This document shows positions 13,665-63,687 of a DNA stretch of 64,000 bases, one piece after another. The translations under genes were made by a program, and so were the position numbers. The notes under the pieces were generated by a model, which searched no databases, was not told the origin of the DNA, and saw only the letters and a list, made by a program, of their open reading frames with translations. Origin of the DNA: a virus; the IMG/VR virus record IMGVR_UViG_3300036790_000048, positions 62,001 through 126,000 of that record; one strand, given 5' to 3'. Numbering within the stretch: the stretch's first letter is position 1; the number at the start of each line of letters is the position of its first letter.

Positions 13665-13678
13665 AAGCTCCCCCTACG

Positions 13679-13703: not shown

Positions 13704-13711
13704 TTATACCG

Positions 13712-15032: not shown

Positions 15033-15033
15033 C

Positions 15034-15417: not shown

Positions 15418-15430
15418 GCACTCCCCCGAT

Positions 15431-15745
15431 CTACTCGTCCCAGTGGCGCTGGGCCGCGTCCTCGCGGTTGACCTGCCGCCGCATCTCGCGGATGCGCTTC
15501 TCCCTGCTCGGCCGGTTGTAGCCGCCGTTGCGCACCAGCGCGCGCCTCGTGCCGCCGTAGCTGTAGAGCAGCCAGGTCGCGACCCCGCCCACCAGCGAGA
15601 TCATGCCGACGAAGGTCACCAGCGCCCAGACGGCCTTGGACTTCCCCGCCGTCCGGTACGCGCCCGAAGGCTGCGCCAGGCAGTCAACAAACCCGCAGAA
15701 CCCCAGGAACGTGCTGATGACCATCCACACGATAAGCCCCGCCAT
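15431..15745 (-). CDS. Two-helix membrane protein, PLDc_N/DUF2516-like
   Basis: 104 residues: helix 1 LIVWMVISTFLGFCGFVDCL, loop with YRTAGKSKAVWALVTF, helix 2 VGMISLVGGVATWLLYSYGG, then a basic helical tail (PSREKRIREMRRQVNRED). The K-x-x-W between two helices resembles PLDc_N/DUF2516 membrane proteins of actinobacteria. Lies between a lipoprotein and a secreted protein, in an envelope-directed group. Confidence 0.65.
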   Translation of the reverse strand: MAGLIVWMVISTFLGFCGFVDCLAQPSGAYRTAGKSKAVWALVTFVGMISLVGGVATWLLYSYGGTRRALVRNGGYNRPSREKRIREMRRQVNREDAAQRHWDE

Positions 15746-15752
15746 GGCTTCC

Positions 15753-15986
15753 CTACTTCCAGAAGTTCGGGCCGACGTCCTTGACCTGAGGCGGGACGTA
15801 AGGCTTCTCGGGAAGCCCCATCGGCTGGTCGGCGTACGGGTTGTAGTGCGACGCTCCCATGCCGCCGCTGCCGTTGGCCGGTACCACCCTCGCCGGTGAC
15901 GCGCTCGCCACGGTGACGCCCCCGAACACTGACGCAGCCACCACCGCTGCCGCCACGACTGCCTTTGCCGCTACCACCATGTGCAT
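15753..15986 (-). CDS. Small secreted protein
   Basis: 77 residues with a Sec signal peptide (MHMVVAAKAVVAAAVVAASV, cleavage likely after VASA). The mature part is Gly/Pro/Tyr-rich (NPYADQPMGLPEKPYVPPQ) and about 45 residues long. ATG at 15986 behind GGGGGAGC. Role unknown. Confidence 0.65.
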   Translation of the reverse strand: MHMVVAAKAVVAAAVVAASVFGGVTVASASPARVVPANGSGGMGASHYNPYADQPMGLPEKPYVPPQVKDVGPNFWK

Positions 15987-15993
15987 GCTCCCC

Positions 15994-16080
15994 CTAGATT
16001 CCGTCCGTGTCCCTCAGCTGCGAGCGCAGCTTTGCGAACCACGCTTTGATACCGGCCCAGACACGCTTAACGATCGTCAT
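15994..16080 (-). CDS. 28-residue amphipathic peptide
   Basis: ATG at 16080, TAG at 15994. Sequence begins MTIVKRVWAGIKAWFAKLRS, a strongly amphipathic basic helix that could bind membranes. It overlaps the previous gene by 14 bases and exactly fills the gap to the secreted-protein gene. Short, so confidence is limited. Confidence 0.4.
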   Translation of the reverse strand: MTIVKRVWAGIKAWFAKLRSQLRDTDGI

Positions 16081-16237
16081 GCCTCTCCCACCATGGATGC
16101 TCCCGGTGCGGGTGGTTCTCCGCCCGCACCCTCACCTCGTACCGGGCGGTGACCGGAAACCAGCGCCACCGCCCGTGCCACAGCCGGACCCGGTGCGAGG
16201 TGACCTCGAACACGGCCCGCGCAGTCGCGACGCTCAC
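16067..16237 (-). CDS. 56-residue basic/aromatic protein
   Basis: GTG at 16237 overlaps the preceding TGA. Rich in Arg, Trp and His (RVRLWHGRWRWFPVTARYE), beta-like. Coupled to the Ig-like gene upstream. Function unknown. Confidence 0.55.
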   Translation of the reverse strand: MSVATARAVFEVTSHRVRLWHGRWRWFPVTARYEVRVRAENHPHREHPWWERHDDR

Positions 16238-16584
16238 GCCACTGCGGTGACTACGGCCTCCCACACCGAGCTGCCGTCGTCCGCGGTGGGGCCGACCTGC
16301 GTGTTGGACGTCACCGTCCACGTCCTGCCCCCGGAGTCGGTCACGGTCACCGTTGGCGTGCTCGGGACCGGTCCTCCCGCCGACGTGATGGTGATGGTCT
16401 GCGCGTCGGCCGTGGCAGTGGCCGCCGCGGCGTTGGCGACGGTGACGTTCACCGTGTCCTGCGCGGGCTGATCCGGGCCGGGCGTGAAGTCGGTCTCGGT
16501 GTAGTCAACGGTCATCTGGATCGTGTCCCCGGCGTTGTAAGCGCCGCCCTGGTTGAACACTACTGACGTGATTGCGATGGACAT
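16234..16584 (-). CDS. Small Ig-like beta-sandwich virion-type protein
   Basis: 116 residues from ATG at 16584 (AGGAGAGGCGTCAA site). The composition is Thr/Val/Ala/Gly-rich with alternating strands (TVNVTVANAAAATATADAQT, then TPTVTVTDSGGRTWTVTS), no Cys. This is typical of Ig-fold phage decoration or tail-attachment proteins. The role is inferred from composition only. Confidence 0.6.
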   Translation of the reverse strand: MSIAITSVVFNQGGAYNAGDTIQMTVDYTETDFTPGPDQPAQDTVNVTVANAAAATATADAQTITITSAGGPVPSTPTVTVTDSGGRTWTVTSNTQVGPTADDGSSVWEAVVTAVA

Positions 16585-16826
16585 TTGACGCCTCTCCTGT
16601 TTGGGTACTGCTGATATCGGGATAAGACCCACTCGGGCAGGCGCACCTCGGCCAGCATCGACGCCAGCTCGCGCCTGCTCAGGACCGCGATAGCCTCTTC
16701 GTACGTGCACGTCACCTCGTGGTGCGGCAGGCCGGGGTGCCACTTGGACGCCCTCCCGCGCCACCTGCGCGCCGGGTCGTGGTAGCCCCACCAGATGCGC
16801 AGCCGGGCGGGCAGCCCCCGCCTCAC
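16560..16826 (-). CDS. 88-residue basic protein
   Basis: GTG at 16826 (GTGA overlap). Contains LRIWWGYHDPARRWRGRASK and a helical segment CTYEEAIAVLSRRELASML. The end overlaps the Ig-like gene by 25 bases. Function unknown. Confidence 0.55.
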   Translation of the reverse strand: MRRGLPARLRIWWGYHDPARRWRGRASKWHPGLPHHEVTCTYEEAIAVLSRRELASMLAEVRLPEWVLSRYQQYPNRRGVKCPSQSRQ

Positions 16827-16990
16827 CGCGCGCTGCTCTTTTCGCACAGCTCCCGGTACTCGGCGTCCATCTTCTCGCGCCGCGTCTTCTGCTCCCACCA
16901 GAACAGGGCCGCCAGCAGCCCGGCCGCAGCCACCCCGCCGATGAACACGCCCAGCGCCACCGCGCTCAGCGTCCCGCCTACTCCGCCCAT
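16823..16990 (-). CDS. Single-pass membrane protein
   Basis: 55 residues. Gly-rich N-terminus, helix VALGVFIGGVAAAGLLAALF, then a charged cytoplasmic helix QKTRREKMDAEYRELCEK. ATG at 16990, one base after the preceding TGA. N-out/C-in topology predicted. Function unknown. Confidence 0.65.
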   Translation of the reverse strand: MGGVGGTLSAVALGVFIGGVAAAGLLAALFWWEQKTRREKMDAEYRELCEKSSAR

Positions 16991-16991
16991 C

Positions 16992-17261
16992 TCAGAACCC
17001 TCCCCTGAACTGCTGCCTGGCCGCGATGACGGCCTCATCTACCTCCGACCGCGCCGGAGGCTCGCACCCGCACTGCCCGCCGCGGTGGACCGGGTTCCGC
17101 AGCAGCGCGTTCATCCGGCTGGTCAGGTCGCGCGCCTCCTCGATCGTCAGCCGCATGCGCATCGGACCCGCGCCCAGGCAGACGACCGTGCCCGGCACCA
17201 GCCACCCGAGGTGGACCTCGCCCTCGCCGCTGTCAGTCTCCAGCGTCTCGTCTGACACCAT
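16992..17261 (-). CDS. Hypothetical protein
   Basis: 89 residues from ATG at 17261. The N-terminal half is beta-like (EVHLGWLVPGTVVCLGAGPM), then a helix (LTIEEARDLTSRMNALL) and a GGQCGCEPP turn. It overlaps the preceding gene by 29 bases. This layout resembles small actinobacterial regulatory-type proteins, but no family is certain. Confidence 0.6.
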   Translation of the reverse strand: MVSDETLETDSGEGEVHLGWLVPGTVVCLGAGPMRMRLTIEEARDLTSRMNALLRNPVHRGGQCGCEPPARSEVDEAVIAARQQFRGGF

Positions 17262-17472
17262 CGCGCCGCCCCTTTCCCGTCATCCGGTCGTACTCGGCCT
17301 GGTCGTGCTCGTGGTCCTGCGTGACGTCGCACAGCGAGCACAAGCCGTAGATGGCGCGGATCAGCCGCAGCGCCGCGTCCAGCGGGTCGGCAGGCGGGAT
17401 GCAGCCCCTGTTGTGCTCCCCCTCGCCATGCGAAGAGTCGGTGCAGTACACCCGCCCGTAAGCCTCCCGCAT
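17233..17472 (-). CDS. Hypothetical Cys/His-containing protein
   Basis: 79 residues from ATG at 17472, which follows AGGAGGGCGTT, a strong site. Contains VYCTDSSHGEGEHNRGC and GLCSLCDVTQDHEHD, likely zinc ligands. It lies inside the last 112 bases of the frame of the previous gene, suggesting that one of the two is shorter than drawn. Confidence 0.55.
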   Translation of the reverse strand: MREAYGRVYCTDSSHGEGEHNRGCIPPADPLDAALRLIRAIYGLCSLCDVTQDHEHDQAEYDRMTGKGRRDGVRRDAGD

Positions 17473-17660
17473 AACGCCCTCCTGACGACCAGCATCGCGC
17501 CCTCGCGGCCCTCAGCCATCAGCAGCGCCGTGCAGGTGTAGCTCAGGTGCCGGGCGCACGACAGCTGCCGGTCGGTCCTGCGCGTGCCGACCGACACGAC
17601 CCACCGCGGCATCGTCATGCAGCTGCCCTGCCAGTCGCAGTGCTCCCACTTCTCCGCCAT
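17361..17660 (-). CDS. Zinc-finger-type hypothetical protein
   Basis: 99 residues from ATG at 17660. N-terminal HCDWQGSC, then VGTRRTDRQLSCARHLSYTC, a C-x5-C...C-x2-H pattern seen in many small actinobacterial proteins. The part after about residue 62 overlaps the next gene by 112 bases and reads like shadow sequence. Confidence 0.55.
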   Translation of the reverse strand: MAEKWEHCDWQGSCMTMPRWVVSVGTRRTDRQLSCARHLSYTCTALLMAEGREGAMLVVRRALCGRLTGGCTAPTLRMARGSTTGAASRLPTRWTRRCG

Positions 17661-17673
17661 GGCGCTTTGCTAC

Positions 17674-17967
17674 CTACTGCCCGCCCCACAGCGGCGCGAG
17701 CTGGTTGTTGAAGTTGAACTCGCTCGCCTGCGTCGCGGTGCCGAAGTAGACCCCGGCCACCGTGTTCAGGTACGCGAGGTCGGCCAGCGCGGTGGTGGCG
17801 TCCTCGCTGCTGTAGCCCAGGGCCTCCAGCGTGGCCTGCCCGGTGCCCTGCCCGTTGACGAACGTGTTCAGGTTGGCGATGCTCTGCATGACCTGCCTCA
17901 TGCCGAGCGCGAAGTTGGTCAGCGACTGGCTCACCGAGTCAGCCGACCCCTGGTTCCCTACCGACAT
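17674..17967 (-). CDS. Small helical protein coupled to the tail-tip gene
   Basis: 97 residues from ATG at 17967, which shares a base with the TAA of the tail-tip protein (TAATG). Helical, no Cys, with LGMRQVMQSIANLNTFVNGQ and a C-terminus rich in Asn/Gln/Phe (ASEFNFNNQLAPLWGG). Likely a tail-tip accessory or tail fibre chaperone, judged by coupling and composition only. Confidence 0.65.
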   Translation of the reverse strand: MSVGNQGSADSVSQSLTNFALGMRQVMQSIANLNTFVNGQGTGQATLEALGYSSEDATTALADLAYLNTVAGVYFGTATQASEFNFNNQLAPLWGGQ

Positions 17968-20900
17968 TACGGACCCTTCCGTGTGAACGTGCTTCCCTCG
18001 CCGGTCACGAACTGGCTGGCGGCCGACGCGCCGAAGATCGACACCAGCGATATCGTGTTGGACACGGTGGTGTTGAACGTGACGCCCGTGTTCTGAGCGC
18101 TCAGGTTCATGAAGTTGGTGTTGGTGCCGGTCGAGCGCGTGCTGTTGAGGCCCAGGTGCGCCTCCCAGAAGAAGTTGGCCGTGCCGCCGGTGCCAGTGGT
18201 GATGATCTGCACGAACAACCGCGCCCAGCCCGTCAGGCCAGCGCCAGCCGACCACGACGCCGAGCCGGTGATGTCGCCGCCGCTGTCACCCGAGGTATTG
18301 GAGCCGTTCAGCTGAGGCCGCAGCTGGATCGTCTCGGACTCGTACTGCGCGTTGAACGGGACCAAGATCTCGTAGACCGTGCCGACGCTGGCGTCATTCG
18401 CGTCGATCGTCCACGCCTTGGTCAGCAGCTGCGTGCCAGCGTTGCTGTTGCTGTGCGTGGCCGCGTCGGTCTGCGAGAAGTCCAGCGTGCCCGTCTGCCC
18501 GCTGTCGCTGGTGACCGACGCCGTGCCCGCACTCGACGCCCACAGCGCCGCGTTGCCGCTCGCAGGCGTGCTCGGAGCCGACCCGCCGATGAGGGTGTAG
18601 GCGGTGCTCATCATGCCCGCGGCGATGGCGTTGCTGTACTGGTCGGTGAACGCCTCAGGGCTGACCGCGGCCACCAGCGTGGACCCGCTGGTGTAGGTGA
18701 TCACGACCTCGCCGTCAGCGCCAGCGCCCGCCTGGGTCGGAGCCGACCCGGTGGTGCCGATGACCTCCAGCTGCAGAGCCTCGCTGCCCGATCCCGTGCC
18801 GTTGAAGTAGCCGTAGTAGCTCAGGTCCCAGCTGCTCGGGCCAGGCCCGATCGTGAACCCGATCAGCGTGCCGTTCGGGAACTGGACCGGCGCGACCGTG
18901 TTGCTGTAGAGCGGCACCGTGATGCGCTCGCCCTCGTCCACGTTGAACTGCGTCAGCGCAGTCGCCCCGGTGCCGTCCCACGTGCTCGGCAGGCTGCTGC
19001 CCTTGGAAGCAGGCCAGCCGCGCAGCTGCACGGTCATGCCGCTGCCGTACCAGCTGTGCTGGTTGGACATGATGCAGTTGATCTGCGAGACGGTGACGCC
19101 CACGCACGCAGCCTGGATGGCGCTGCTGTTGAACAGCCAGGCAGCCTTCTGCGTGCCGTTGGCGCTGCCCCCCGTCGCCAGCTCGCCGCCCTGCCAGATG
19201 GTGCTGTTGCTCGCCCTCGTGCCGTTGGCGTCACCGTTGGAAGCGTCGGACCCGTAGTAGCTCTTGCTGCTGGTCGCGTCGAACGTCTGCGAGAACGCGA
19301 CCACACCAGACGCCGCCCCAGCGCCACCCCCAGCCGCACCAGGCGAGTTGCCGTTGCTGCCGTTCGCAGCCCCGTTGCCGCCATGGCCTCCAGCCGCGCC
19401 GCCTCCAGTGCCAGCCACGCCGCCAGCCGATCCGGTCGAGCCGCTGGGCACAGTCGCCTGCCCGCCGCCGTTCACCGTGCCAGCCGAGCCGCCGCCTCCA
19501 GCGCCGCCCGTGCCAGACCCCGAGTTCTGCCCAGCCCCGCCGTTCTTGTGGATAGGGTCGCTCGATCCCGTTCCGCCAGCGCCTCCCGTGCCGCCGTAGC
19601 CAGCCTGGCCGCCGTGCGCGTACGGGCCGCCGTTGAAGTAGGAGTCGCCGCCGTTGCCGCCCGCGTTCCCGGTCGAGCCGCCTCCGCCGCCGTTGCCGAC
19701 CACGTACCCGTACGTCGCCAGCGGCACGACCGGCAGGTTCGGGTTGCTGGCGCACTCGCCGCCCCCGCCAGACTCGCCGCCGTTGCTGGTGGTGCCGCCG
19801 CCTCCGCCAGCCCCAGCGCCAGTGCAGGTGACGCTGCAGGTGGTCACCCCAGCAGGCGGCGTGAACGTGTAGTTGCCGTTGCTGCTCTCGGTGATCGTGG
19901 TGGTGGTGCTCGTGTAAGCCAGCAGCCACCCGTCCGTGGAGTCGAACGTTATCTCGGTCTCGATCATGGAGCCGCCGCTGATCGGAGCCTGCGTGATCGC
20001 CGTGCCCGTCAGCGTGCTCGTGCTGTCCATGGACGAGTTGGTGATGTTGGTCGAGTCGAGGTCAACGCCGGTGATCGCGCCGCTCAGCACCTGCAGGCCA
20101 GCCGGATACGGGTTGCTGAAGCCGTCCGTGCCAGCCTGCCCGCTCCAGCTGCCCACCAGGTTGCCGGTCTGCGGCGTGCCCGAGTAGATCAGCAGCTGCC
20201 CGGCAGCGCCGTCCGCGACCACGCTCGCGCCAGTGATCGTCGTCGCGTCCACGATCCCGGCCACGACGATGCCGCTCACCAGGTTGGCGGCCAGGATCGT
20301 GTTGGCGGCGATCTGCGTCGCAGTGATGGTGCCGCTCTGGATGTTGCCCGCCTGGATGGTGCCCGAAGCTATGAGGGAGCCAGTGATCGTGCCAGCCAGG
20401 ATCTGCCCGGCCGTGATCGTGTTCGATGCGATCTGCGTGGCGGTGATCGCCCCTGCAGCTATGGCGGAGGTACCGTACTGGTAAGCCGTCCAGACGCCAG
20501 CGCTCCAGGTGCTCAGCTGGTAGCCGCTCGCGCTGTTGAACCACATGTTGCCGTTGGTGTTGCCGTGCAGCGTGTCGCCGGTGCTGATCGAGGACGATGC
20601 AGTCGGAGTGAAGCCGACGATGACGTTGCTGCCGCTCGGCGTGATGCTCGTGACCGTGAACGGGCCGCCGCGAGCGTTGGTGACGTCGGTGAACGTGTCG
20701 CCCAGCGCCAGCGGGGTGGCGCTCGTCAGGACAGACCCAGCCGTGGTGAACGTGCTCGTCGTGCCCGCGCTCGGCGTCAGGCTCCAGTCGTAAGGCGCGG
20801 AGGAGGCAACGAACACTCCAGTGCCGCCGATGGACTGCGCCACGAACCCAGCATTGCTAGCAGCCACCCCGCCCGCGGCAATAGCCGCGCTGCTGAACTG

Positions 20901-52559: not shown

Positions 52560-53621
52560 TCAGGTGACGACGCCCGACACGTAGAGCAGCTGCTCCGGCC
52601 GGGTGATGATGGGCAGAAGGTTCCACTCCAGCAGGTACTGCCGCGCCGAGGGGTCCTTTTCCTTCCACGTCTTGGCGTACTTGCCGGTGAATCCGTCCGG
52701 GGCCTCATCGTCCGCGGTCGGCCCGATGAGCAGCTCGATCGGCCGCTGGTCGGTGAAGTTGCCCAGGTAGAGGTTGCCGTCCGGAACAAAGAACGTCAGG
52801 TTGCCCTGGGCGTTCTCGTAGACCTGCTCGACCTGGGTCCAGGTGAGGCCCATGAACCCGTCGATCATGCCGGACGAGTAGTACTGGTCCTTCATCCGGT
52901 CCGAAAGCATGGTGGCCATGATGGACACCGTGGCGCTGGTCGTAGCCGACGCCCACGCCTCCATGAGCGCCGCCATCGTCACCTGCGTGGCGAATGCCTC
53001 GCGCGCCGGGACCCGGCCGTGGATCTGGACGATGCGCTTCCAGCTGCGCACGTCCTCGACGATCGCCAGCGGGTTCTTGTACGTCGCGCCAACCGTCGCG
53101 TTGACCGAGTTGAGGTTGGACGAGCCGCTCGCCCAAGGCGTGCCCAGAGAGATGATGTGGCTGGACGGGAACCCGTAATTCACCACGCCCTGCACGTCCG
53201 GGTAGCTGTAGGTCAGCGTACCCGTGAGCGCCTGCCAGATCGACCACTCCGCGAAGTTGTCGAACCGGATGTTGAGGTCGTTGATCTCCCTCAGCACCGC
53301 ACGCTCGGCGTTGATCGCCGCCAGCTGACCGGGCTCGCGCAGCCAGCGGATGGTGGTGGGCTGGAAGACCTTCTTTTCACGAAGGTAGATGAACGCCGCG
53401 GCCTCCTGCTGCCGGCCGAGGCGGGAGACGACATGCGCCTCCGAGTTCGGGACGTTGGGCGTGGCCACCATCCGGCTGCCCTTGATGACGTCCCAGGTGG
53501 CGGACGGGTAAGGCCAGGGCGTCTGGTCGAGGCGAGACAGCATGGTCATCGTCTCGGGAGTCACGAACTTCTCCACGACGCCCCGCAGGACCATGGGCTC
53601 CAGTAGTGAAATGTCGGGCAT
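52560..53621 (-). CDS. Major capsid protein, lambda-E (Phage_cap_E) type
   Basis: 353 residues from ATG at 53621 (GAGAGGTTTAGCG). SLLEPMVLRGVVEKFVTPET at the start; WLREPGQLAAINAERAVLRE, QVTMAALMEAW, VPDGNLYLGNF and the end RQYLLEWNLLPIITRPEQLL are typical of Phage_cap_E proteins. It forms the icosahedral shell after scaffold-assisted assembly. Neighbours (decoration protein and protease/scaffold) agree. Confidence 0.85.
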   Translation of the reverse strand: MPDISLLEPMVLRGVVEKFVTPETMTMLSRLDQTPWPYPSATWDVIKGSRMVATPNVPNSEAHVVSRLGRQQEAAAFIYLREKKVFQPTTIRWLREPGQLAAINAERAVLREINDLNIRFDNFAEWSIWQALTGTLTYSYPDVQGVVNYGFPSSHIISLGTPWASGSSNLNSVNATVGATYKNPLAIVEDVRSWKRIVQIHGRVPAREAFATQVTMAALMEAWASATTSATVSIMATMLSDRMKDQYYSSGMIDGFMGLTWTQVEQVYENAQGNLTFFVPDGNLYLGNFTDQRPIELLIGPTADDEAPDGFTGKYAKTWKEKDPSARQYLLEWNLLPIITRPEQLLYVSGVVT

Positions 53622-54886: not shown

Positions 54887-56002
54887 CTACTTACGCCGCG
54901 CCGTGTTGGACGAGACGACGTGTTCCGAGTAGACCTTGGCCAGCCGGTCCACCTCGGCTGCCTGCTGGTCACTCTGCCGCTGGTCATCCGGCGGCGTGAA
55001 CCCGACCTGCTGTCCCACCGGCACGATCGGCTCCGAGGGAACGAAGTCCCCGAAGTCAGCCGGGCTGGAGAGCTGCAGCTTGATGGCGAACTCGCGCTGC
55101 TTGGGAAGGATGTGGCCGGTGCCGATCAGGCCGTCCACCGTCTCCGCCGCGCGCTCGCGCCGCATCTCGTTGTAGCCGTCCGCCAGCGTGCGGTTCTGCG
55201 CGCTCAGCTCGACGACTGCTCCCACCAGGTCGTCCTGGGTGATGTTGTCACCGGACGACTGCGAGAGGCTGAGGTTGGGGTTCGACTGCAGCGCCGCGGT
55301 CATCGCCGCGGTCAGCGACGCCTGGTCAAGCGTCGGCAGTCCGGCCGGCTGCTGTGCGGCAGCCTGCAGCGCGTCCAGGTCGATGCCGTGCTCGGCGCTC
55401 AGCATCGCCTTGATCTCATCGAGAGTCGGCACCGTGTTCTCCTCCTGGGTCATCACTACATATTCACCATCAGTATCGGAGCCTGCCGTGGCCGCGATAA
55501 TCTCGCGGTAAGGCTCCAGCCCGACCACGTACGGCCGGTTGGTCACCGCGACGTGCAGCAGGGTCGGCCCTGCCTTACGGCCCGTGCGGGAGTCGGTGTA
55601 GTTGGTGGACAGGAACGCGCTGGCACCGAGGTACGTCTTGCCGAACTTGTCCGGGTCCTCGCGTGCGTCGATGACGGCGTACACCTTGCCACCACGCTCG
55701 CGCAAGCCGATGACCTCGCCCTTGTTGGAGTCCGCGCCCTCGACGTGCTTGTTGGAGTCGTTGGCCAGCGGCACCTGCACGATGTCACAGACGTTGTTCT
55801 CGAAGTTGCTCATCATGCGGGCCACGAAGTCATCGTCCACGTTGATCCGCTCGCCCGTGTCCGGGTGGATCAACGGCCCCTTGGTGAGGATGTGCTTCTC
55901 GAACAGGCGGCCCTGCGCCATGCGCGACAGGGCGATCGGCGCGCTCTCGATCTCAGTCCAGCGGGAGCCTGCCGGTGACGGCACAATGAACGATCCATCC
56001 AT
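54887..56002 (-). CDS. Mu-I-like capsid protease fused to scaffold
   Basis: 371 residues from ATG at 56002, eight bases after a CCGATAG motif; upstream in-frame codons belong to another gene. Residues about 15-180 (NNVCDIVQVPLANDSNKHVE, GEVIGLRERGGKVYAVIDA, GPTLLHVAVTNRPYVVG) fit a Mu I-like prohead protease. Residues about 190-370 are helical, Gln/Ala-rich scaffold (LDALQAAAQQPAGLPTLDQA, TQDDLVGAVVELSAQNRTLA). It directs shell assembly and then cleaves scaffold. Confidence 0.8.
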   Translation of the reverse strand: MDGSFIVPSPAGSRWTEIESAPIALSRMAQGRLFEKHILTKGPLIHPDTGERINVDDDFVARMMSNFENNVCDIVQVPLANDSNKHVEGADSNKGEVIGLRERGGKVYAVIDAREDPDKFGKTYLGASAFLSTNYTDSRTGRKAGPTLLHVAVTNRPYVVGLEPYREIIAATAGSDTDGEYVVMTQEENTVPTLDEIKAMLSAEHGIDLDALQAAAQQPAGLPTLDQASLTAAMTAALQSNPNLSLSQSSGDNITQDDLVGAVVELSAQNRTLADGYNEMRRERAAETVDGLIGTGHILPKQREFAIKLQLSSPADFGDFVPSEPIVPVGQQVGFTPPDDQRQSDQQAAEVDRLAKVYSEHVVSSNTARRK

Positions 56003-56025: not shown

Positions 56026-56538
56026 TCAGGCCTTGACGAGCGCCTGATCCAGGTTGTAAAGGTCCTCCGGTGTGACGTACCCAGGCCACCGGTTGTCCGT
56101 GAACAGGTGCACGCCCTGGTCCATGTACGCCTGGTCGCACAGCTGCGAGCAGATGAGGTGGCCGCTGCTGGCGATGTAGTTCTTGAGCGCTGGCCCAGGG
56201 ATGTCCAGCCGGTGCGCAGCCAGGGCAAAGTAGTCCGCGAAGCTGTAGCCGACCCCGGTGTACTTCTGCGCGCCCGCCCAGACAGCGGTCAGCGTCTTGG
56301 CATTGGTCAGCTTGGCAATGCTCGTGCACCAGTAGATGCTGCTGTACTCGCTGACGTTGCCGACCCGCGCCCCGCCGGGCTCGGCCTCCAGTATCCGGCC
56401 GCCAGGGCCGAGCAGGAACGCGTGCTCCCAGTCCTTGAACCCGTCGCCGTTCAGCCACTGGCCGATCTCGATCAGCTTGCCGACGTTCCCTGATATCTGA
56501 GTCAGCCCGATCGTGCCGGGCAGTACCGAAGCAGCCAT
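56026..56538 (-). CDS. Permuted NlpC/P60 (YiiX/YebB-type) papain-fold hydrolase
   Basis: 170 residues from ATG at 56538. DWEHAFLLGPGGRILEAEPG holds the His (E-H-A-F) and SSGHLICSQLCDQAYMDQGV the Cys (I-C-S-Q-L), the order being permuted relative to NlpC/P60. Known relatives cleave amide or ester bonds in peptidoglycan, lipids or proteins. It lies between the two kinase genes and the capsid protease, so it may be packaged in the virion. No signal peptide. Confidence 0.75.
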   Translation of the reverse strand: MAASVLPGTIGLTQISGNVGKLIEIGQWLNGDGFKDWEHAFLLGPGGRILEAEPGGARVGNVSEYSSIYWCTSIAKLTNAKTLTAVWAGAQKYTGVGYSFADYFALAAHRLDIPGPALKNYIASSGHLICSQLCDQAYMDQGVHLFTDNRWPGYVTPEDLYNLDQALVKA

Positions 56539-56545
56539 GCCATGC

Positions 56546-56725
56546 CTATCGGCACTCGTTCAGCACCTGGTGGTACCACACCGCGGCCTGGTGATCGCCA
56601 GTCGCCCTCAGCCCAGCCGTGCGCTCGGACAGGTACTGGATGACCGCACCCAGCGCCGTGTCCGCCGCCCTCTCGTCATGTCCGTCGCGCACCATGGCGT
56701 TGACCAGGTGCTCGCGCATGTCCAT
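56546..56725 (-). CDS. 59-residue helical protein
   Basis: ATG at 56725 (TGATG overlap), TAG at 56546 within a CCGATAG motif. Helical (MREHLVNAMVRDGHDERAAD, LRATGDHQAAVWYHQVLNE). Function unknown. Confidence 0.6.
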   Translation of the reverse strand: MDMREHLVNAMVRDGHDERAADTALGAVIQYLSERTAGLRATGDHQAAVWYHQVLNECR

Positions 56726-56916
56726 CAGTCGTCGGACATCTCAGCCCAGTCAGCCGGGAGGTCAGGGACCACCCCGTCCGGCAGGCTCTCGATGTCCCGG
56801 CCGATCTGATCCCACAGTGTCCGGTTGGCTGGCGTGTCCGGCACCCCGTCCGGCGGGTACGCCCCGCCAGCCAGGATCTCCCGCATCATCGCCGCAGCGA
56901 CTGCTCCCTGGCTCAT
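56725..56916 (-). CDS. 63-residue hypothetical protein
   Basis: ATG at 56916 (ATGA overlap with the kinase stop). Helical N-terminus (GAVAAAMMREILAGGAYPPD) and acidic C-terminus (PDLPADWAEMSDD). Coupled between the zeta-toxin kinase gene and the next small gene, so it could be a cognate partner; no such function is shown. Confidence 0.6.
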   Translation of the reverse strand: MSQGAVAAAMMREILAGGAYPPDGVPDTPANRTLWDQIGRDIESLPDGVVPDLPADWAEMSDD

Positions 56917-58652
56917 CCTGCCGCCTTGACCTTGAATCGCTCCCACAGAGCCGGGTGGTCCACCGTGAACGACCCACCCTCTGGCTGGTGCGCTACGAGC
57001 ACAGGCTTTGACCCGATCGGCCCGCTGTTGTCCCATAGCTCCGTACTGTCAAAGAGGCCGTTGGTCGCCGCCCTCGTGTACGTGTCCGCCACCCCGGTGT
57101 GCGTTGCGCGGATGACCGACTCGGGCACCATGCGCCCGGTCTGCTGCCCCCTGATCGTGGCCCGCTTCACCGCCTCAGGCGTCTCAACGTCAACGTACCT
57201 CCCACTAGTGGTATACCCATTAGCCTGGGCTCTACGCACCTTGTCAGACATCTTCTCCACGCTGGTGTCGCCCGTGCCATCCAGCGTGAAGTTGATGCGC
57301 CGCCGCATGGCCTCGCGCATCGCCTGCTTGGCGATCTCGCTGGACTCCTCGTGCACATACACCGACGCCGACTTGTCCCCCGCGTCTCGCATCCTCTTGT
57401 ACTCAGGCAGCTTCTCCTTGATGTCATCCGAGTTGATGACCGCCGAGTTGCTGCGCTCGCGCGGGCTGCCGAGCACCGTGGACTTGCCGCTCCCCGGACC
57501 GCCGCCGTAGAACGTGGCCCGCGGATGCGCCTGCGGCTCGTGCCCAGCCAGGATTCCGTCAATGATGTGCTGGTGCAGGACCGCCCGATCCGGGGCGATC
57601 GACCCGTCAGGCAGGGTGTGCTTCTCCAGCGAGTCCTTGGCCCGCACATGCGGCGGGAAGTACCCGTTGCCCGTCTTGAAGTGGTAAGCGCCGCCGACCG
57701 AGTGCGCATACGCGCCGATCCTCTCGACCTCATCCGGCGTGTCCACCACGACCACCGGGTCAAAATCAATGCGGTGGTTGTCGTCGTCGTGGAACACGCC
57801 CAGGTAGTACGACTGCCGCTCCAGCACCGGCCGGTAGGTTTCCAGCGCGTGGTCCATCGCCGTGCGGAACTGCTTCTCGCTGGCGTCCTCGGGCACGCTG
57901 ACCTTGGGCGTCTTGGCCGGCTTGACCGACAGCGCGTACTTGTCCGCCGTGGACTCCAGCACCTGCCCGGTGTGCGCGTCGATCGTCGCGCCGCCCCACG
58001 GCTTGCGCACCTCGTTCCACGCGTGGTCCGAGACGACGCCCCAGTTCTGCTCCAGCCCGGTGGCAGGTGCCTTGTCCCGCTTCATCTTGTCGATGATCGA
58101 GTTGCCCTCGCGCGCCAGCTGCCTGAACTCCTCCGGGCTCACCGCGCGGCTGTTGCCCCTGGCCTCGGACTCGATGATGTGCGGATAGTGCTTGTCCCGC
58201 ACGCGCCAGGCCGCCTCGCCGCGCTGCTCCCAGATGCGCTGGCCCTCACGCCACTTGTCAGCCGGGATGAACTCGCCGCGGGGCCGCTTGCGCGTGACGT
58301 AGCCGCGGACGTGCTCTATCCGGCCGCGCTCCCGGCGGACAGACGGCCGGACCTGCGCCAGCCCTACCGCCGGGTCAGGCTCCTCTTCCGGCTCCCCGTC
58401 CTGCGCGTCGTCCGCGGCCGACCGCCAGTGGCCAGGACCCCGCCACCGCACCTGGTCAGGCACGCGCACGTACGACACGTAGCCGTTGTACTTGCCCTCC
58501 AGGTGCGCGAACCCCTTCTCCGGGCTGCCCTGCTGCTGCGATACCTGGTCCGCTATCTCCTGCAGGCTGGGCGTGCTGCCCGTCAGCCTGCCGTCAGCCA
58601 GCTCGATGGTGCCAGCAATGCCCTGCCGCGTGGCCACCTGCAGTGTGGTCAT
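56913..58652 (-). CDS. Zeta-toxin-family kinase in the capsid module
   Basis: 579 residues from ATG at 58652. Residues about 108-150 carry a module (HVRGYVTRKRPRGEFIPADK, then WREGQRIWEQRGEAAW) also present in the next protein upstream. Residues about 380-575 form a zeta-type P-loop kinase: FYGGGPGSGKSTVLGSPRE (Walker A), AVINSDDIKEKLPEYKRM, NFTLDGTGDTSVEKM, and YVDVETPEAVKR. Zeta toxins phosphorylate UDP-N-acetylglucosamine sugars and stop wall synthesis. No epsilon antitoxin is obvious. Probably packed in the head or made late; substrate not known. Confidence 0.8.
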   Translation of the reverse strand: MTTLQVATRQGIAGTIELADGRLTGSTPSLQEIADQVSQQQGSPEKGFAHLEGKYNGYVSYVRVPDQVRWRGPGHWRSAADDAQDGEPEEEPDPAVGLAQVRPSVRRERGRIEHVRGYVTRKRPRGEFIPADKWREGQRIWEQRGEAAWRVRDKHYPHIIESEARGNSRAVSPEEFRQLAREGNSIIDKMKRDKAPATGLEQNWGVVSDHAWNEVRKPWGGATIDAHTGQVLESTADKYALSVKPAKTPKVSVPEDASEKQFRTAMDHALETYRPVLERQSYYLGVFHDDDNHRIDFDPVVVVDTPDEVERIGAYAHSVGGAYHFKTGNGYFPPHVRAKDSLEKHTLPDGSIAPDRAVLHQHIIDGILAGHEPQAHPRATFYGGGPGSGKSTVLGSPRERSNSAVINSDDIKEKLPEYKRMRDAGDKSASVYVHEESSEIAKQAMREAMRRRINFTLDGTGDTSVEKMSDKVRRAQANGYTTSGRYVDVETPEAVKRATIRGQQTGRMVPESVIRATHTGVADTYTRAATNGLFDSTELWDNSGPIGSKPVLVAHQPEGGSFTVDHPALWERFKVKAAG

Positions 58653-59920
58653 TTCACCGCCCATGATGGTAGGTCCAGAGGCCGCGCCGCCTGGTCGGCT
58701 GGCTCGGCCTGCTCCCGCAAGAAGTCAAGCCTCTCGATAGCCGTGGTGAGCCACTGCTCCCGACCGCGGGCAGCGAACTCCGGGGCGGTCGCCTCCAGCC
58801 TGCTGCGGATCTCGTCCATCAGCTCCGGGTGCTGGTTCCACCATTGCCCCGTGGTCGCCCGCCAGAACGGGCTGTAGACCTGCCCCCCGGCGAAGATCAG
58901 GCCGTGGTCGATGGGCACCGGCGTGCCGTCCGCCTGCATGATGTAGTTACCGCCGTGCCGGTCGATGTTCTGCGTCAGGTAGTCCATCAGCCCGATGCGC
59001 TTGCCCGCGTCGCTGTTGTATACCCGCTGCTTGGCCGCGTCCGGGTCAGGCTGCTTGTCTATCCAGTTGAGGAAGATCTCGCCGGGCGCGAACTCCTCGG
59101 CAATCTCGCCGTTGTCACCGAACAGCCCGTGCGCCGCCTGCACCTGCGCCACAGCCGGAGCGCCCGCGCCGACCGCCTGCGAGATGTGGTACGCCAGCAC
59201 CTCCCGGTCCACGGTGGGCTGCTCCATGCCCGACTTGTCCACCACCTTGTGACCGTCGTCCAGGTCGAGGACCTCCACGTGCCCCTGCACGCCCTGGTCA
59301 GGCTGCGCCGGGTCGCTCGTGCTGTGCTTCCGCAGCCCGTCCGCCACCTCCCGCTGCAGCTCGGCCATGCCCTGCGACGGAGAAAGGTGCTGCGGGTGCG
59401 CGGGCGGTTCCGGCTCCGACTCCGCCTGAGACGGCAGCCATCCCAGGATGAGACTGCGAGTCTGGTCCGGGTGGTCGTCCGGCACCAGCGTGTCCTGGTT
59501 GTCATCGTAGCTGACGTCGATCGCAGACTGGTCCACCCACCGGGGGATGCCGACCTTGGAGAAGAACACCCACCGGCCGTCGCGCAGCTGGATCGCGTGC
59601 TCGTCCGGGTGCTTAAGCGACCTCAGGTACTTGGCCCCCTCAAGCATGTCCTCGGACCTAGACCGCGACCGGGGGACGAACTGGTCCCGCGGCGGGAGCG
59701 CGCGGCGGAGGTTGTCCGGGACGCCCTTGTCCCACTCCGCCTCGCCGCGCTCCTCCCAGATGCGCTGGCCCTCCAGCCACTTCTCCTCGGGTATCCAGCC
59801 TTCCTTCGGCCGCCGGGTCACGTAGCTGCGGACGTGCTCGCGCCGCCCGTGCTCCACACGATCGAATGACTTGACCTGCGCGAGCGCCATCACGCTGCCG
59901 TCTTCCAGCCTGATGGTCAC
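58649..59920 (-). CDS. PI3K/HipA-fold kinase-like protein in the capsid module
   Basis: 423 residues from GTG at 59920 (AGGAGCCTCCT). N-terminal module at about 27-63 (HVRSYVTRRPKEGWIPEEKW, LEGQRIWEERGEAEW) is shared with the zeta-type protein. C-terminal half: LMDYLTQNIDRHGGNYIMQ (D-x-x-x-x-N-x-D-R-H-x-x-N catalytic loop) and PIDHGLIFAGG (activation-loop Asp) fit the phosphatidylinositol-kinase-like / HipA-like fold. Target may be protein, lipid or nucleotide. The adjacent zeta-type gene and shared module suggest that both act together. Confidence 0.75.
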   Translation of the reverse strand: MTIRLEDGSVMALAQVKSFDRVEHGRREHVRSYVTRRPKEGWIPEEKWLEGQRIWEERGEAEWDKGVPDNLRRALPPRDQFVPRSRSRSEDMLEGAKYLRSLKHPDEHAIQLRDGRWVFFSKVGIPRWVDQSAIDVSYDDNQDTLVPDDHPDQTRSLILGWLPSQAESEPEPPAHPQHLSPSQGMAELQREVADGLRKHSTSDPAQPDQGVQGHVEVLDLDDGHKVVDKSGMEQPTVDREVLAYHISQAVGAGAPAVAQVQAAHGLFGDNGEIAEEFAPGEIFLNWIDKQPDPDAAKQRVYNSDAGKRIGLMDYLTQNIDRHGGNYIMQADGTPVPIDHGLIFAGGQVYSPFWRATTGQWWNQHPELMDEIRSRLEATAPEFAARGREQWLTTAIERLDFLREQAEPADQAARPLDLPSWAVK

Positions 59921-59929
59921 AGGAGGCTC

Positions 59930-60178
59930 CTAGTCGTCGCTCTCGTACAGCCCAGGGATCTCTGACAGAATTTTCCGCGCGCCAGAGACATCGGGGCCGC
60001 TGACCACAAGGCCGTGATCCTCCAGCGCCTGCAGGTCCCACGGCCCGAACTCGAACCTGTCTCGCGACTGCCTTGAGTACTCCATGAGAAGCACAAGCGC
60101 CACCGAGTAGGCCAGGCGCATGGACGCCCGGTAGCGGATGCTTTCAGTGATCTCGGCTGGCTGGGCCGGGGTGCTCAC
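59930..60178 (-). CDS. 82-residue hypothetical protein
   Basis: GTG at 60178 (GTGA overlap). Helical with hydrophobic SMRLAYSVALVLLMEYSRQS, then DLQALEDHGLVVSGP. Between MuF and kinase genes. Function unknown. Confidence 0.6.
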   Translation of the reverse strand: MSTPAQPAEITESIRYRASMRLAYSVALVLLMEYSRQSRDRFEFGPWDLQALEDHGLVVSGPDVSGARKILSEIPGLYESDD

Positions 60179-60423
60179 TTAAGCACCACCCGCTGGATCT
60201 CATAGGAGATGATCGTCTCGTCCGTTCCCTCGATGACGCGCAGGTCGTGCGGCTGCGTACCACCGGACTCCGCCTCGATGATCTGCATGACCTCGTACCG
60301 GTCGGTCTCGTACCGGTCGTACTCGTCGCCCTCCGTGACCTCCGGGTCCGGTGGCTTGATCACCCACTCCACCCGCCGGATGGCCACCTCACGGCGCGGG
60401 AACTTGGTCTTCACGTCGCTCAC
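60175..60423 (-). CDS. 82-residue acidic beta-type protein
   Basis: GTG at 60423 overlaps the MuF stop. Alternating acidic/aromatic strands (VEWVIKPPDPEVTEGDEYDR, YEVMQIIEAESGGTQ). No family recognised. Coupled to both neighbours. Confidence 0.6.
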   Translation of the reverse strand: MSDVKTKFPRREVAIRRVEWVIKPPDPEVTEGDEYDRYETDRYEVMQIIEAESGGTQPHDLRVIEGTDETIISYEIQRVVLK

Positions 60424-61310
60424 TGTCTCCCCACCTCCCGGTGCTTCTGCAGCACCTGTCCTAGCTCGTGCACCGCCGCGTGGTGAAAGCCGCGCAGCGC
60501 CTCGTACCTGCCCTCGGACATGGCTCGCACGTCGTCGGCAGAAACGAATAGGTCTGGCGCCTCACGCGGTGAAGGCGCGGGGCTGGGCGTGCCAGACCGT
60601 ACCAGAATGATACGGCAGCGGCAGCGGGGATGCCGCGGCGGGCACGATAGATCGACGTAGACCCTGGGCGGCCTGCGCGTGCCGATGTAATCCCCTTCCG
60701 GGAACTCCTGCTCCACCGGCACCGCGGGCATGGCGTCCAGCGCTCGGCACCACCCGCACACCCGCTTGTCCGGCCGGCCGCGCGAGTCCTTGCGGCACTC
60801 CCATTTCTTCATCCAGCCGGGCTCAGCCCCAGCGAGCACCGCCTCGCCCGCGCGCCGCACTCCTGCCACGCTCTCGGTCATCTCATTGCGGAATCCAAGA
60901 TGCCAGGCCGCCGACGACAGCTGATTCCGCACCGCCGTGGCCCGCTGCTCGGCCGCCCGCATGACCGGGTTAGTCCCCGGCGTGCTGACGCCAGGCACGA
61001 ACGTGCCAGCCTGCACCGAGTAGAACGCCTGCGCGAACGCCGCGCGCATCGCAGCCGGTGCCTGGACGTACGCCTGCTCCACGTCCTGCTGCAGCCGGTC
61101 CCGGTACCGAGACGAACCCGGCGGCCACGCTTTATCGAGGCTGGCCTGAGCCTTGGCCTGAGCGTTGGCCAGGCTCCGCTCCATGGCGCGCATCACGTCC
61201 GGCCGCGCCAGCAGGTCGTACGGGTCAGCCTGCGGGTTGTTCCTGGTCACCGACTCCAGCAGAGCGACCCATGATCCGAACTGCCCCGCTACCTCACGCT
61301 GTAGGGTCAT
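60420..61310 (-). CDS. MuF-like minor head protein
   Basis: 296 residues from ATG at 61310, overlapping the portal end by 17 bases. Long helical N-terminus, then GWMKKWECRKDSRGRPDKRV, CGWCRALDAMPAVPV and CPPRHPRCRCRIILV, the classic MuF Cys pattern (C-x-x-C ... C-H-P-x-C-R-C). MuF proteins bind portal/inner capsid and can be ejected. C-terminal about 50 residues are extra but not toxin-like. Confidence 0.85.
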   Translation of the reverse strand: MTLQREVAGQFGSWVALLESVTRNNPQADPYDLLARPDVMRAMERSLANAQAKAQASLDKAWPPGSSRYRDRLQQDVEQAYVQAPAAMRAAFAQAFYSVQAGTFVPGVSTPGTNPVMRAAEQRATAVRNQLSSAAWHLGFRNEMTESVAGVRRAGEAVLAGAEPGWMKKWECRKDSRGRPDKRVCGWCRALDAMPAVPVEQEFPEGDYIGTRRPPRVYVDLSCPPRHPRCRCRIILVRSGTPSPAPSPREAPDLFVSADDVRAMSEGRYEALRGFHHAAVHELGQVLQKHREVGRQ

Positions 61311-63201
61311 CGCCGTACGGGTCGTCGCCCCGCATCTTGATCACGTCCGCCAGGATCTCCCCCACCAGGGACACCATGGCCCGGTCCTGCCGGCTGAACC
61401 CAGTCACCGGGTTCTGCGACTGCTGCCCGCCCGGCCGAGCGCCCCCGCTAGTGGGCGGCCGCGGCGGCGCACCGCCCCCGCCAGGTGGCTGGCCCGCCCC
61501 CTGCGGCTGCGGGCTGCCAGCGCCAGGCAGTCCGCCAGGAGGAGGCATGCCCCCGCCCATGCCCGGCATCCCACCACCGCTGGGGCTCTCCAGCTGATCC
61601 TGCATCTGGGACCGGTTCAGCTTCTGCTGCATCTGGTCCTCTTCGTTGGCCTCGCGCTCGATGGGACCGTAGTCGATGTCCAGGCCCAGGAACTTGGCCA
61701 TTTTCTTCTCCAGCTCCATGAGGAACTGCCTGCTCACAGCCCCAGGCGGAGCCGCCGCCAGCTTGTCGAACGTGTCCTGTATCGCAGCCTGCTGCTCCTC
61801 GGTCAGCACGCCCCACCGGAACACCGGGTACTTGGCCGACCCGAAGTTCCAGTCGATGAACCGGGGGATGATGTGGTGGTTGATATTCCACGCCATGTCG
61901 TCCATGATGGCCTGTTCCATCATCATGAACGTCTCGTCGTTCTCGTTCCCGAAGTCCAGCAGGGTGCCCTCGTTGTTGCCAGACCCCTGGTCGCTGTCGA
62001 ACCACGACGCCAGCACCGACTTGGACATCTGGTTGTTGTGGTGGTTGATCAGGCCGAGGTAGTCGAACTGGCTCTGCACCTCGTTCAGGCTGGTGACCGT
62101 CCAGTCCGAGGACGGGACCACGATGTACTGCGCCATGCCCAGGTCGCGCAGCGCCGCCGTGAAGTTCTGCTTGTCGCTCTTGGCCGGGTTGGGCGGCATG
62201 GTGCCCACCCGCGTGCCGACCGCGGCGCGCTGCGCAGCCAGGTGCGTGATGTAGTAGAGCTTGACCTTCTTGTCGTAGTGGTAGAACGCAGACTCGAACA
62301 GGCTGATCCCGTAGAACGGCCTCTCCTCTTCACCGTTGGCGAAGTAGAACGCCCGCTCCTTGGGAATCTTGACGTCGATCGTGCGCCCTTGGAAGAACGT
62401 CCGCTGCCGGAACCCGTTGAACTCGCCCTGCCCGTCCAGCAGGAACGTCAGCGTCTCCGCCGGCCTCCAGTCCATCTTGCGGATCGTGACCATGTTCTTC
62501 ATGGGGCCGGTCTTGGGCACCCAGTAGACCATCTCGAACCCGCTGAACCCGTCGAACGTGGCCAGCAGCATCCGCCGGATGAAGTGGTTGAAGCTGTGCG
62601 TCATCCCGCCCACGCTGGGCGGCAGGAAGAACATGTTGTGGATGAACTCGGTCTCCGCCTCGGCGGCCGACCCAGGGTCCTCGCCGTGCGGCAGCTGCTC
62701 TTTCCCCTGGTCCCCTGACGAAGGACCCTGCAGCGTCGTCTCCTCATCCGCCTTGCCGCCGACCGGCTCGTACTCCTCAGGCGGAACGATCGCCGCGTTC
62801 TTGAGCGCCGCCAGGATGGGCATGGTGACCAGCCGGTACAGCGCCCGCGCCTGCCCGTCCTGTCGCCGCATCCCGATCAGCTGGCGGATGGTCACCGGGT
62901 CGTCGCGGAAGATCTCCCAGCTGTCCCGGTACGGCGTGGCGAACGGCAGGTAGTACGGGACGCCGACGACGAAGTTCTCTTCCTCCGGCCGCGGGCGGGC
63001 CATCGGCCCGACGTCGGACGAGTCGAGGATGTACCCCTCTTGCCCGAAGCCCTGGCTGGTGACGCCCATGCCGCCAGGCGGCGAGCTGCCGAACCCGCCG
63101 GGCGGAGGGGCCAGCGACCCGGCCGCAGCCAGGCCCAGCATCTCGCCCTCAGCCTCGCGCGCTAGGCCGATGACATCGACTACGCCATCATCATTGCTCA
63201 C
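61294..63201 (-). CDS. Portal protein
   Basis: 635 residues from GTG at 63201, seven bases after a CCGATAG motif. YYLPFATPYRDSWEIFRDDP, then MGVT-type Gly-rich N-terminus, helical core (LASWFDSDQGSGNNEGTLLD, DDMAWNINHHIIPRFIDWNF) typical of SPP1/HK97-type portals (DUF935-like layout). The C-terminal about 130 residues are Pro/Gly/Gln-rich (GGGMPPPGGLPGAGSPQPQG). Forms the 12-mer DNA gate. Confidence 0.85.
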   Translation of the reverse strand: MSNDDGVVDVIGLAREAEGEMLGLAAAGSLAPPPGGFGSSPPGGMGVTSQGFGQEGYILDSSDVGPMARPRPEEENFVVGVPYYLPFATPYRDSWEIFRDDPVTIRQLIGMRRQDGQARALYRLVTMPILAALKNAAIVPPEEYEPVGGKADEETTLQGPSSGDQGKEQLPHGEDPGSAAEAETEFIHNMFFLPPSVGGMTHSFNHFIRRMLLATFDGFSGFEMVYWVPKTGPMKNMVTIRKMDWRPAETLTFLLDGQGEFNGFRQRTFFQGRTIDVKIPKERAFYFANGEEERPFYGISLFESAFYHYDKKVKLYYITHLAAQRAAVGTRVGTMPPNPAKSDKQNFTAALRDLGMAQYIVVPSSDWTVTSLNEVQSQFDYLGLINHHNNQMSKSVLASWFDSDQGSGNNEGTLLDFGNENDETFMMMEQAIMDDMAWNINHHIIPRFIDWNFGSAKYPVFRWGVLTEEQQAAIQDTFDKLAAAPPGAVSRQFLMELEKKMAKFLGLDIDYGPIEREANEEDQMQQKLNRSQMQDQLESPSGGGMPGMGGGMPPPGGLPGAGSPQPQGAGQPPGGGGAPPRPPTSGGARPGGQQSQNPVTGFSRQDRAMVSLVGEILADVIKMRGDDPYGDDPTA

Positions 63202-63228: not shown

Positions 63229-63687
63229 TTACGGCAGCAGCGGCACGACCGTGACAACATGGTCCCCCGGCAGCGTCAGGTGGTCCTGGTCACCGGGCTT
63301 ATGCAGGTTCTCCAGGTAGTGCGTGTAGACCTGAGGCGACGGTGCCGGGACGGCCGGTGCCATCCCAGGCTCCTGCACCTGGGGCTGCCCCGGCATCGGC
63401 TGCGCCCCCGGCTGCCCGGGCTTGGGCATGGGCTTGGCCCCCGGCAGCGGGGCCGCCAGCCCGACCTTGGCGTTCTTACCCCCCTTGGGCGGCTTGAACG
63501 CCGGAGCCGCGATGACCTTCCACAGCTCCGCTCCCATCTGGATGATGTCCCCGACGTTGACCTTGCTCCACGCCACCCGGTAGGGACGGCCTAGCCTGGG
63601 CTGGCCGTCCTTCACCGCAGTCGGCTTGGTGACCCTGACGGCTCCGCCAGCCAGGCGGACCACCCGCTCCAGGTGAGACTCACGCAT
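63229..63687 (-). CDS. Small basic protein between terminase and portal
   Basis: 152 residues from ATG at 63687. N-terminal beta-rich half (HLERVVRLAGGAVRVTKPTA, VGDIIQMGAELWKVIAAPAF) looks SH3-like; the middle is Pro/Gln/Gly-rich (GAKPMPKPGQPGAQPMPGQP). Position between terminase and portal is conserved for small accessory proteins; function unknown. Confidence 0.65.
   Translation of the reverse strand: MRESHLERVVRLAGGAVRVTKPTAVKDGQPRLGRPYRVAWSKVNVGDIIQMGAELWKVIAAPAFKPPKGGKNAKVGLAAPLPGAKPMPKPGQPGAQPMPGQPQVQEPGMAPAVPAPSPQVYTHYLENLHKPGDQDHLTLPGDHVVTVVPLLP

What the first reader, a model, noticed from the sequence alone, without database searches (positions are those of the whole stretch)
56026..59920. 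Two kinase-fold enzymes with a shared module plus a permuted NlpC hydrolase inside the head operon
A PI3K/HipA-fold protein (58649-59920) and a zeta-toxin-type kinase (56913-58652) are adjacent between the MuF gene and the capsid protease, and both carry the same ~40-residue module (HVR-x-YVTR...W-x-EGQRIWE-x-RGEA-x-W). A papain-fold YiiX-type hydrolase follows. MuF-linked toxins in other phages are thought to be loaded in the head. A common module could be the loading or ejection tag, making this an effector set delivered with the DNA. No antitoxin for the zeta kinase is evident, which fits sequestration in the virion.
Basis: partly seen in the sequence, partly recalled or inferred. Interest (0 to 1): 0.8.

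Follow-up and report, generated by a model that had tools for sequence, protein, structure and literature searches.

The report
Shared tag on phage head-operon enzymes
An uncultured phage carries two different kinase-like enzymes among its head-building genes, both bearing the same short module, and that module turns up on many other enzymes in related phages but always beside head genes, so it is probably a tag that loads enzymes into the virus particle for injection; this is not yet tested in a virion.

Summary
A PI3/PI4-kinase-like protein (58649-59920) and a zeta-toxin kinase (56913-58664) are adjacent in the head operon, between MuF and the prohead protease, and share a ~55-residue module (61.8% identity, BLAST E 5e-13). 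The module is predicted to be a basic beta-hairpin plus a helix. It occurs in about 24 IMG/VR contigs, attached to zeta kinases, an ADP-ribosyltransferase, DUF7178 proteins, a MuF-C-like domain and a membrane-type protein. All 25 distinct module ORFs scored lie within 8 kb of portal, MuF, protease or terminase genes, including 11 loci from a position-blind scan of the collection. Several cargo domains are fused to MuF or portal in other phages instead. Five head-region genes also share an N-terminal tag (SSLEKVLRLA). Best reading: a lineage-specific head-loading module on accessory effectors, working like T4 and P1 capsid-targeting sequences. Unrelated viruses (Bacteroides phage DAC19, halovirus HCTV-5, Magritte-like phages) show their own shared modules, so the layout recurs. 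The YiiX hydrolase lacks the module and its examined isolate homologues lie outside head operons, so it is probably not part of the set. Virion presence, ejection, cleavage and enzyme activity are untested.

The parts
58649..59920 (-). Module + PI3/PI4-kinase-like protein (423 aa, GTG start with AGGAG upstream)
   Evidence: PF00454 E 2.8e-7 at aa 273-344; VVDKSG (aa 226-231), EVLAY (aa 240-244), DRHGGN (aa 320-325), IDHG (aa 337-340)
59723..59890 (-). Shared module, copy 1 (aa 11-66: MALAQVKSFDRVEHGRREHVRSYVTRRPKEGWIPEEKWLEGQRIWEERGEAEWDKG)
   Evidence: predicted beta-hairpin (aa 19-30) + helix (aa 45-66), block pLDDT about 80-86 in the well-predicted parts
56913..58664 (-). Zeta-type kinase protein (579-583 aa): N-terminal stretch, module, middle domain, zeta kinase
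   Evidence: PF06414 E 8e-30 at aa 372-543; nearest isolate relative is the MuF-zeta protein of cyanophage PSS2, 35.5% over 219 aa
58200..58364 (-). Shared module, copy 2 (aa 97-151, GLAQVRPSVRRERGRIEHVRGYVTRKRPRGEFIPADKWREGQRIWEQRGEAAWRV)
   Evidence: 61.8% identity to copy 1, E 5e-13
57633..58154 (-). Middle domain of the zeta protein, also found fused to portal+ART in L052 and to module+DUF7178 in relatives
   Evidence: phmmer E 3e-46 to the L052 ORF; same WGG.TIDAHTG...FHDD..IDPV..GNGYFPPH sequence in L113, L125, L127, L150, L154
57024..57539 (-). Zeta kinase domain with Walker A GGGPGSGKST and DD, HEE, DGTG and Arg motifs
60420..61310 (-). MuF-like minor head protein
   Evidence: PF04233 weak here, stronger in positional homologues
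61294..63201 (-). Portal protein
   Evidence: PF06074 E 2e-33
63229..63687 (-). 152-aa head-region protein with N-terminal tag MRESHLERVVRLAGG
   Evidence: counterpart in L013 (MDTPHLDKVLRLAAGG)
59930..60178 (-). 82-aa gene (FEFGPWDLQALEDHGLVVSG) that directly precedes the cargo slot, also in relatives
54887..55984 (-). Mu-type prohead protease/scaffold
   Evidence: PF10123 E 3.5e-8
52560..53621 (-). Major capsid protein
   Evidence: PF03864 E 9e-22
56026..56538 (-). YiiX/permuted NlpC-type hydrolase without the module (probably not part of the set)
   Evidence: phrog_1128 E 3.5e-16; 114 isolate phages, the four examined have it outside the head operon

Best explanation
The two kinases are accessory cargo effectors in a variable slot of the head operon, and the module they share is a head-association (loading) module. 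Made late with portal, MuF and scaffold/protease, the proteins would be recruited into the prohead through it (helix and basic hairpin contacting scaffold, portal or DNA), stay inside the filled head and enter the next host with the DNA. There the zeta kinase would phosphorylate cell-wall precursor sugars and the PI3K-like enzyme an unknown target. Shown: the shared module, its portability between enzymes, its confinement to head operons, the domain swaps with MuF and portal, and the accessory nature of the pair. Inferred: recruitment, packaging, ejection and substrates.
For: Module beyond chance. The module in about 24 contigs on zeta (L044, L089), ART (L051), DUF7178+middle domain (L113, L124, L125, L127, L150, L154), a MuF-C-like domain (L015) and a membrane-type protein (L009, L013). 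29 of 29 module ORFs (25 distinct) within 8 kb of head genes, including 11 loci found only by a position-blind pattern scan. In whole-record searches all matches with E below 1e-8 lie in the head cluster. Domain swaps: zeta fused to MuF in PSS2; middle domain fused to portal+ART in L052; the domain after L015's first module is the C-terminus of MuF-like minor capsid proteins in 454 phage records, nearly all actinophages. Closest relatives lack both kinases in an otherwise syntenic operon. Precedents: T4 capsid targeting sequence (PMC7411985), P1 DarB N-terminal 30 aa sufficient for packaging (PMC9024508), zeta kinases fused to MuF predicted to be injected (PMC5512222).
Against: No virion proteomics for any module-bearing phage. 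In the zeta protein the module starts at about residue 95, so it is not a simple N-terminal signal. Zeta proteins of other head operons (PSS2, L060, L075) lack this module. The five SSLEKVLRLA-tagged genes suggest a second sorting element that the kinases lack. The kinase fold rests on one weak Pfam match.
Confidence: 0.62

Rival explanations
1. The module is an assembly or anchoring domain of permanent virion parts: module proteins sit at the portal or capsid inner wall, the enzymes act in the producing cell or on virion parts, and nothing is injected.
For: Some carriers have no recognised enzyme domain (L009 7858-8880 membrane-type, L013 8171-8638). The module-DUF7178 protein holds a fixed position beside MuF in many relatives, as a structural gene would.
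Against: Kinase, zeta and ART carriers come and go between relatives, which fits cargo better than an essential part.
Confidence: 0.2
2. The module starts with a propeptide: the conserved [VIL]xLA at its beginning is a prohead-protease cleavage site, as at the end of the T4 capsid targeting sequence. (A refinement that can hold together with the best explanation.)
For: An LA site precedes nearly every module copy and ends the N-terminal tag; in L015 such sites separate units of one long protein.
Against: A VELA sequence is also a fixed part of the protease itself, probably structural. The MCP shows no such site. In zeta the site is about 95 residues in. No cleavage data.
Confidence: 0.25
3. 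Local duplication: a fragment was copied between two adjacent genes and has no function of its own.
For: The two copies are in adjacent genes and alike at DNA level.
Against: The module is conserved in about 24 contigs on unrelated proteins at 27-52% identity with invariant positions.
Confidence: 0.04
4. The kinases are ordinary moron, defence or toxin genes parked in the late operon and acting in the producing cell (superinfection exclusion, lysis timing).
For: Accessory distribution; an antitoxin may not be needed if expressed only late (inference).
Against: Does not explain the shared module or the swaps with MuF and portal.
Confidence: 0.14

Closest known systems
T4 capsid targeting sequence (IPI-III, Alt)
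   Same: A short element shared by several otherwise unrelated head-loaded proteins, one of them an ADP-ribosyltransferase (PMC7411985)
   Different: Here about 55 aa, hairpin plus helix, not always N-terminal; no sequence comparison with T4 was made; cleavage and sufficiency unknown
P1 DarB packaging signal / Dar system
   Same: Head-carried proteins acting on the new host; N-terminal 30 aa of DarB sufficient for packaging (PMC9024508)
   Different: No common sequence among Dar proteins was found there; here a clear common module exists
Polyvalent proteins (Iyer et al. 2017)
   Same: Zeta, ART and other enzyme domains in head-gene context, predicted to be packaged and injected (PMC5512222)
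   Different: Effectors here are separate proteins joined by a shared module instead of one giant protein; the passages read do not describe this module
MuF-linked toxins / PSS2 MuF-zeta
   Same: Zeta kinase tied to the head through MuF
   Different: In the window MuF is a separate gene and the module takes the place of MuF
Halovirus HCTV-5 gp109/gp114
   Same: ART and zeta+ParB proteins beside portal and MuF share a 38-aa module at 71% identity
   Different: Unrelated module sequence; archaeal virus

Membership tests
Zeta toxin kinase (PF06414) | Zeta kinase domain with Walker A and catalytic residues | tested here: met
   E 8e-30; motifs; matches zeta toxin 1gvn at E 1.7e-5
Zeta toxin-antitoxin system | Cognate epsilon/PezA-type antitoxin encoded next to it | tested here: not met
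   Neighbouring genes scanned match no antitoxin family; the 59-aa ORF was not scanned
PI3/PI4 kinase-like | PF00454 catalytic core with DRHxxN and D-x-G-type metal motif | tested here: met
   31.1 bits, cut-off 27.1; motifs
PI3/PI4 kinase-like | Kinase fold | tested here: inconclusive
   Model mean pLDDT 41
T4-type capsid targeting sequence | Common short element on several head-region proteins | tested here: met
T4-type capsid targeting sequence | N-terminal position | tested here: inconclusive
   N-terminal in the kinase and several relatives, internal in window zeta and L015
T4-type capsid targeting sequence | Removed by the prohead protease; sufficient to package a reporter | not testable with these tools
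   Needs virion proteomics and fusions
Polyvalent protein | Conflict-type enzyme domains in late/head gene context | tested here: met
Polyvalent protein | Two or more effector domains in one polypeptide | tested here: inconclusive
   Zeta protein: module + middle domain + zeta; kinase protein: one enzyme domain only
MuF polymorphic toxin | MuF domain in the same polypeptide as the toxin | tested here: not met
   MuF is a separate gene
YiiX / permuted NlpC-P60 (56026-56538) | Membership of the phage YiiX-like family | tested here: met
   phrog_1128 E 3.5e-16; homologue in phage Samy annotated NLPC_P60 superfamily

The most novel reading that the evidence does not exclude
Tailed viruses carry lineage-specific cargo tags: each lineage has its own short module that is swapped onto diverse effectors to load them into the head. 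The window's module, the NRKLGRVG leader of Bacteroides phage DAC19, the TPEGA..YGLPIG leader of Magritte-like phages and the GEHRYQ repeat of halovirus HCTV-5 would be independent versions of what T4 does with its capsid targeting sequence.
Probability: 0.4. Interest if true: 0.82.

Novelty: new variant of a known kind. Interest (0 to 1): 0.62.

Why it matters
How phages choose which enzymes to carry in the head is known in detail only for T4 and partly for P1, where no common signal was found among the Dar proteins (PMC9024508). A module recognisable in sequence would let one list head-carried effectors from genomes alone and find new ones by tag instead of by enzyme family. The DAC19 version sits in a cultured phage of a Bacteroides thetaiotaomicron strain, so the idea can be tested directly.

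Tried and rejected
Whole-protein searches: the kinase had no tblastn match in isolate phages and no confirmed relative in IMG/VR; a module search in bacterial genomes gave no confirmed match, nor did a portal search there. tblastn of a module consensus against isolates gave only chance matches (E about 5-10). Structure prediction of the kinase alone failed, so no fold search was made. The zeta protein's N-terminal 85 aa and its middle domain had no isolate match. LxLA as a protease site: VELA in proteases looks structural and enrichment in portals is modest, so it is kept only as a rival. YiiX as a third effector: rejected. Papers: none found that describe this module; that is absence from one open-licence library only. 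One script failed on a syntax error and one alignment call on a wrong frame.
Full report
What was checked. The window is bases 62001-126000 of a 139,587-base IMG/VR virus record. The head operon runs on the minus strand: terminase, a 152-aa gene, portal (PF06074, E 2e-33), MuF-like protein, two 82-aa genes, the PI3/PI4-kinase-like protein (58649-59920), the zeta protein (56913-58664), small ORFs, YiiX, protease (PF10123), a second head protein, a LysM protein and the major capsid protein (PF03864). The nearest isolate is Microbacterium phage Magritte (terminase 44%, portal 47%, MCP 61%), so the host is probably an actinobacterium (inference).

The shared module. The two kinases share 55 residues at 61.8% identity (E 5e-13). 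Aligned with nine other copies it has two parts: LxLA-x-V[RK]x[YF]xRxxRGRxExVRxY, strongly basic (pI 10-12), and WIPxxKWxxGQxxWxxxGEAxW. AlphaFold with that alignment gives a beta-hairpin (aa 19-30) and a helix (aa 45-66), mean pLDDT 69 overall and 80-86 in the best blocks: a small tag-like module, not an enzyme domain. No Pfam family covers it.

Where it occurs. An iterated profile found it in the first set of loci. A position-blind DNA pattern for the second part was then run over all of IMG/VR: 27 stretches matched, 15 of them true modules (in all but one truncated case the first part is present too), the rest chance matches or unrelated proteins. A later profile-guided scan added L150, L152, L154 and L155. 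Of 29 module ORFs scored (25 after removing re-fetched duplicates), all lie within 8 kb of a portal, MuF, protease or terminase gene. Caveats: several loci were first fetched because they hold a terminase, and several contigs are near-identical; the 11 new pattern-scan loci are the fair part of the test. A search of 39 whole records found every match with E below 1e-8 inside the head cluster; a few weak matches (E 1e-4 to 1e-2) are scattered.

What it is attached to. PI3K-like kinase (window); zeta kinase (window; L044 PF06414 6e-21; L089 2e-18; L095 4e-20 with only the first half of the module); ADP-ribosyltransferase (L051, PF03496 8e-11); a protein with a VIDGHHRW, ParB-like signature seen by eye only (L051, phrog_2859); DUF7178 plus the middle domain of the window's zeta protein (L113, L124, L125, L127; PF23802 E 9e-36 to 3e-23); a MuF-C-like domain (L015); a membrane-type protein (L009, L013). 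In L125 and L127 the module gene sits exactly in the window's slot: MuF, 82-aa gene homologue, module protein, small gene, protease.

Domain swaps. The zeta domain's best isolate relative is the PSS2 minor head protein, which is MuF + zeta in one chain. The middle domain of the window's zeta protein is fused to portal and ART in L052. The domain that follows the first module of L015 is the C-terminal region of MuF-like minor capsid proteins in 454 phage records, nearly all actinophages. So the same cargo domains are tied to the head by MuF or portal in some phages and carry the module in others. This is the main argument that the module does the same job.

Accessory nature. Two closer relatives keep the operon order but have a DNA methyltransferase and no kinase or zeta gene in this stretch; one has YiiX, one does not (L100/L022, L029).

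A second tag. L.[KR][VIL][LVI].[LF][AKS] occurs five times in 43,118 aa of this record, each time at residues 3-7 of a gene within 7 kb around the terminase. Over all loci (slightly wider pattern) there are 22 N-terminal against 13 internal matches, with 0.65 N-terminal expected (related loci are not independent). Two of the five tagged genes run straight into the first half of the module.

Recurrence in unrelated viruses. A within-locus BLAST found other shared modules on head-linked or zeta-linked proteins. In DAC19, zeta gp77, gp80, gp82 (AAA-like) and gp85 share a leader ending NRKLGRVG, with a further copy on gp202 near the portal and a MuF-like gene. In HCTV-5, ART gp109 and zeta+ParB gp114 share 38 aa at 71%. 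In Magritte-like phages, zeta proteins and neighbouring giant proteins start with TPEGA..YGLPIG..IT. DAC19 and HCTV-5 were fetched because they hold a zeta gene, so this is no rate estimate.

Mechanism. Most likely the module binds a head component during assembly and brings the enzyme in; ejection with the DNA follows by analogy with T4 Alt and P1 DarB (PMC7411985, PMC9024508) and with the published prediction for MuF-linked zeta kinases (PMC5512222). None of these steps has been shown here.

YiiX. It lacks the module, and 114 isolate phages carry homologues; in the four examined it sits among tRNA or DNA-metabolism genes. It is better read as a mobile accessory gene.

Verdict. Observation confirmed; interpretation partly supported. 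The finding is a new variant of a known kind (head-loaded effectors), with a recognisable, portable module that makes the loading question directly testable.

Noticed in passing
L011 (Bacteroides phage DAC19, MT074139) 7773-15236; L139 12348-14006: Zeta kinase gp77, gp80, gp82 and gp85 share an N-terminal leader (LNLSSF...GxYxxxxxNRKLGRVG); gp202 near portal and a MuF-like gene has it too, and gp91 has its first half.
   Followed up: partly
L012 (Halovirus HCTV-5) 2076-3044 and 7665-11546: ART and zeta+ParB proteins in the head operon share repeated modules (DPTEEAPxRWTHTETGEHRYQETKPG; RVYVDxPxDAPEG).
   Followed up: partly
L014 (Magritte) 12048-18023; L053; L060; L064; L075: Giant head-operon proteins and zeta proteins start with a shared VRTPEGAxxYGLPIGxPIT leader.
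   Followed up: partly
L052 11797-17760: One 1988-aa ORF fuses portal, ADP-ribosyltransferase, the middle domain of the window's zeta protein and a HEMGH metallopeptidase-like motif (the last by eye).
   Followed up: partly
L009 7858-11674 (record 127858-131674, upstream of terminase): Four consecutive genes share an N-terminal SSLEKVLRLA tag; one looks membrane-inserting, one carries DUF6582.
   Followed up: partly
L100 and L022 (terminase), also L075, L087, L088: The terminase match spans 2.5-3 kb, suggesting insertions; in L022 the sequence before the last terminase part (HNFAIDAGVFVHNS) looks like the end of an intein.
   Followed up: no
L100 16205-17203 and L029 11039-12367: A DNA methyltransferase-like gene occupies this stretch of the head operon in the closest relatives, where the window phage has the kinase pair.
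   Followed up: no
L009 13655-19576: A run of glycosyltransferase-like and nucleotide-sugar genes precedes the head operon, as in Magritte.
   Followed up: no
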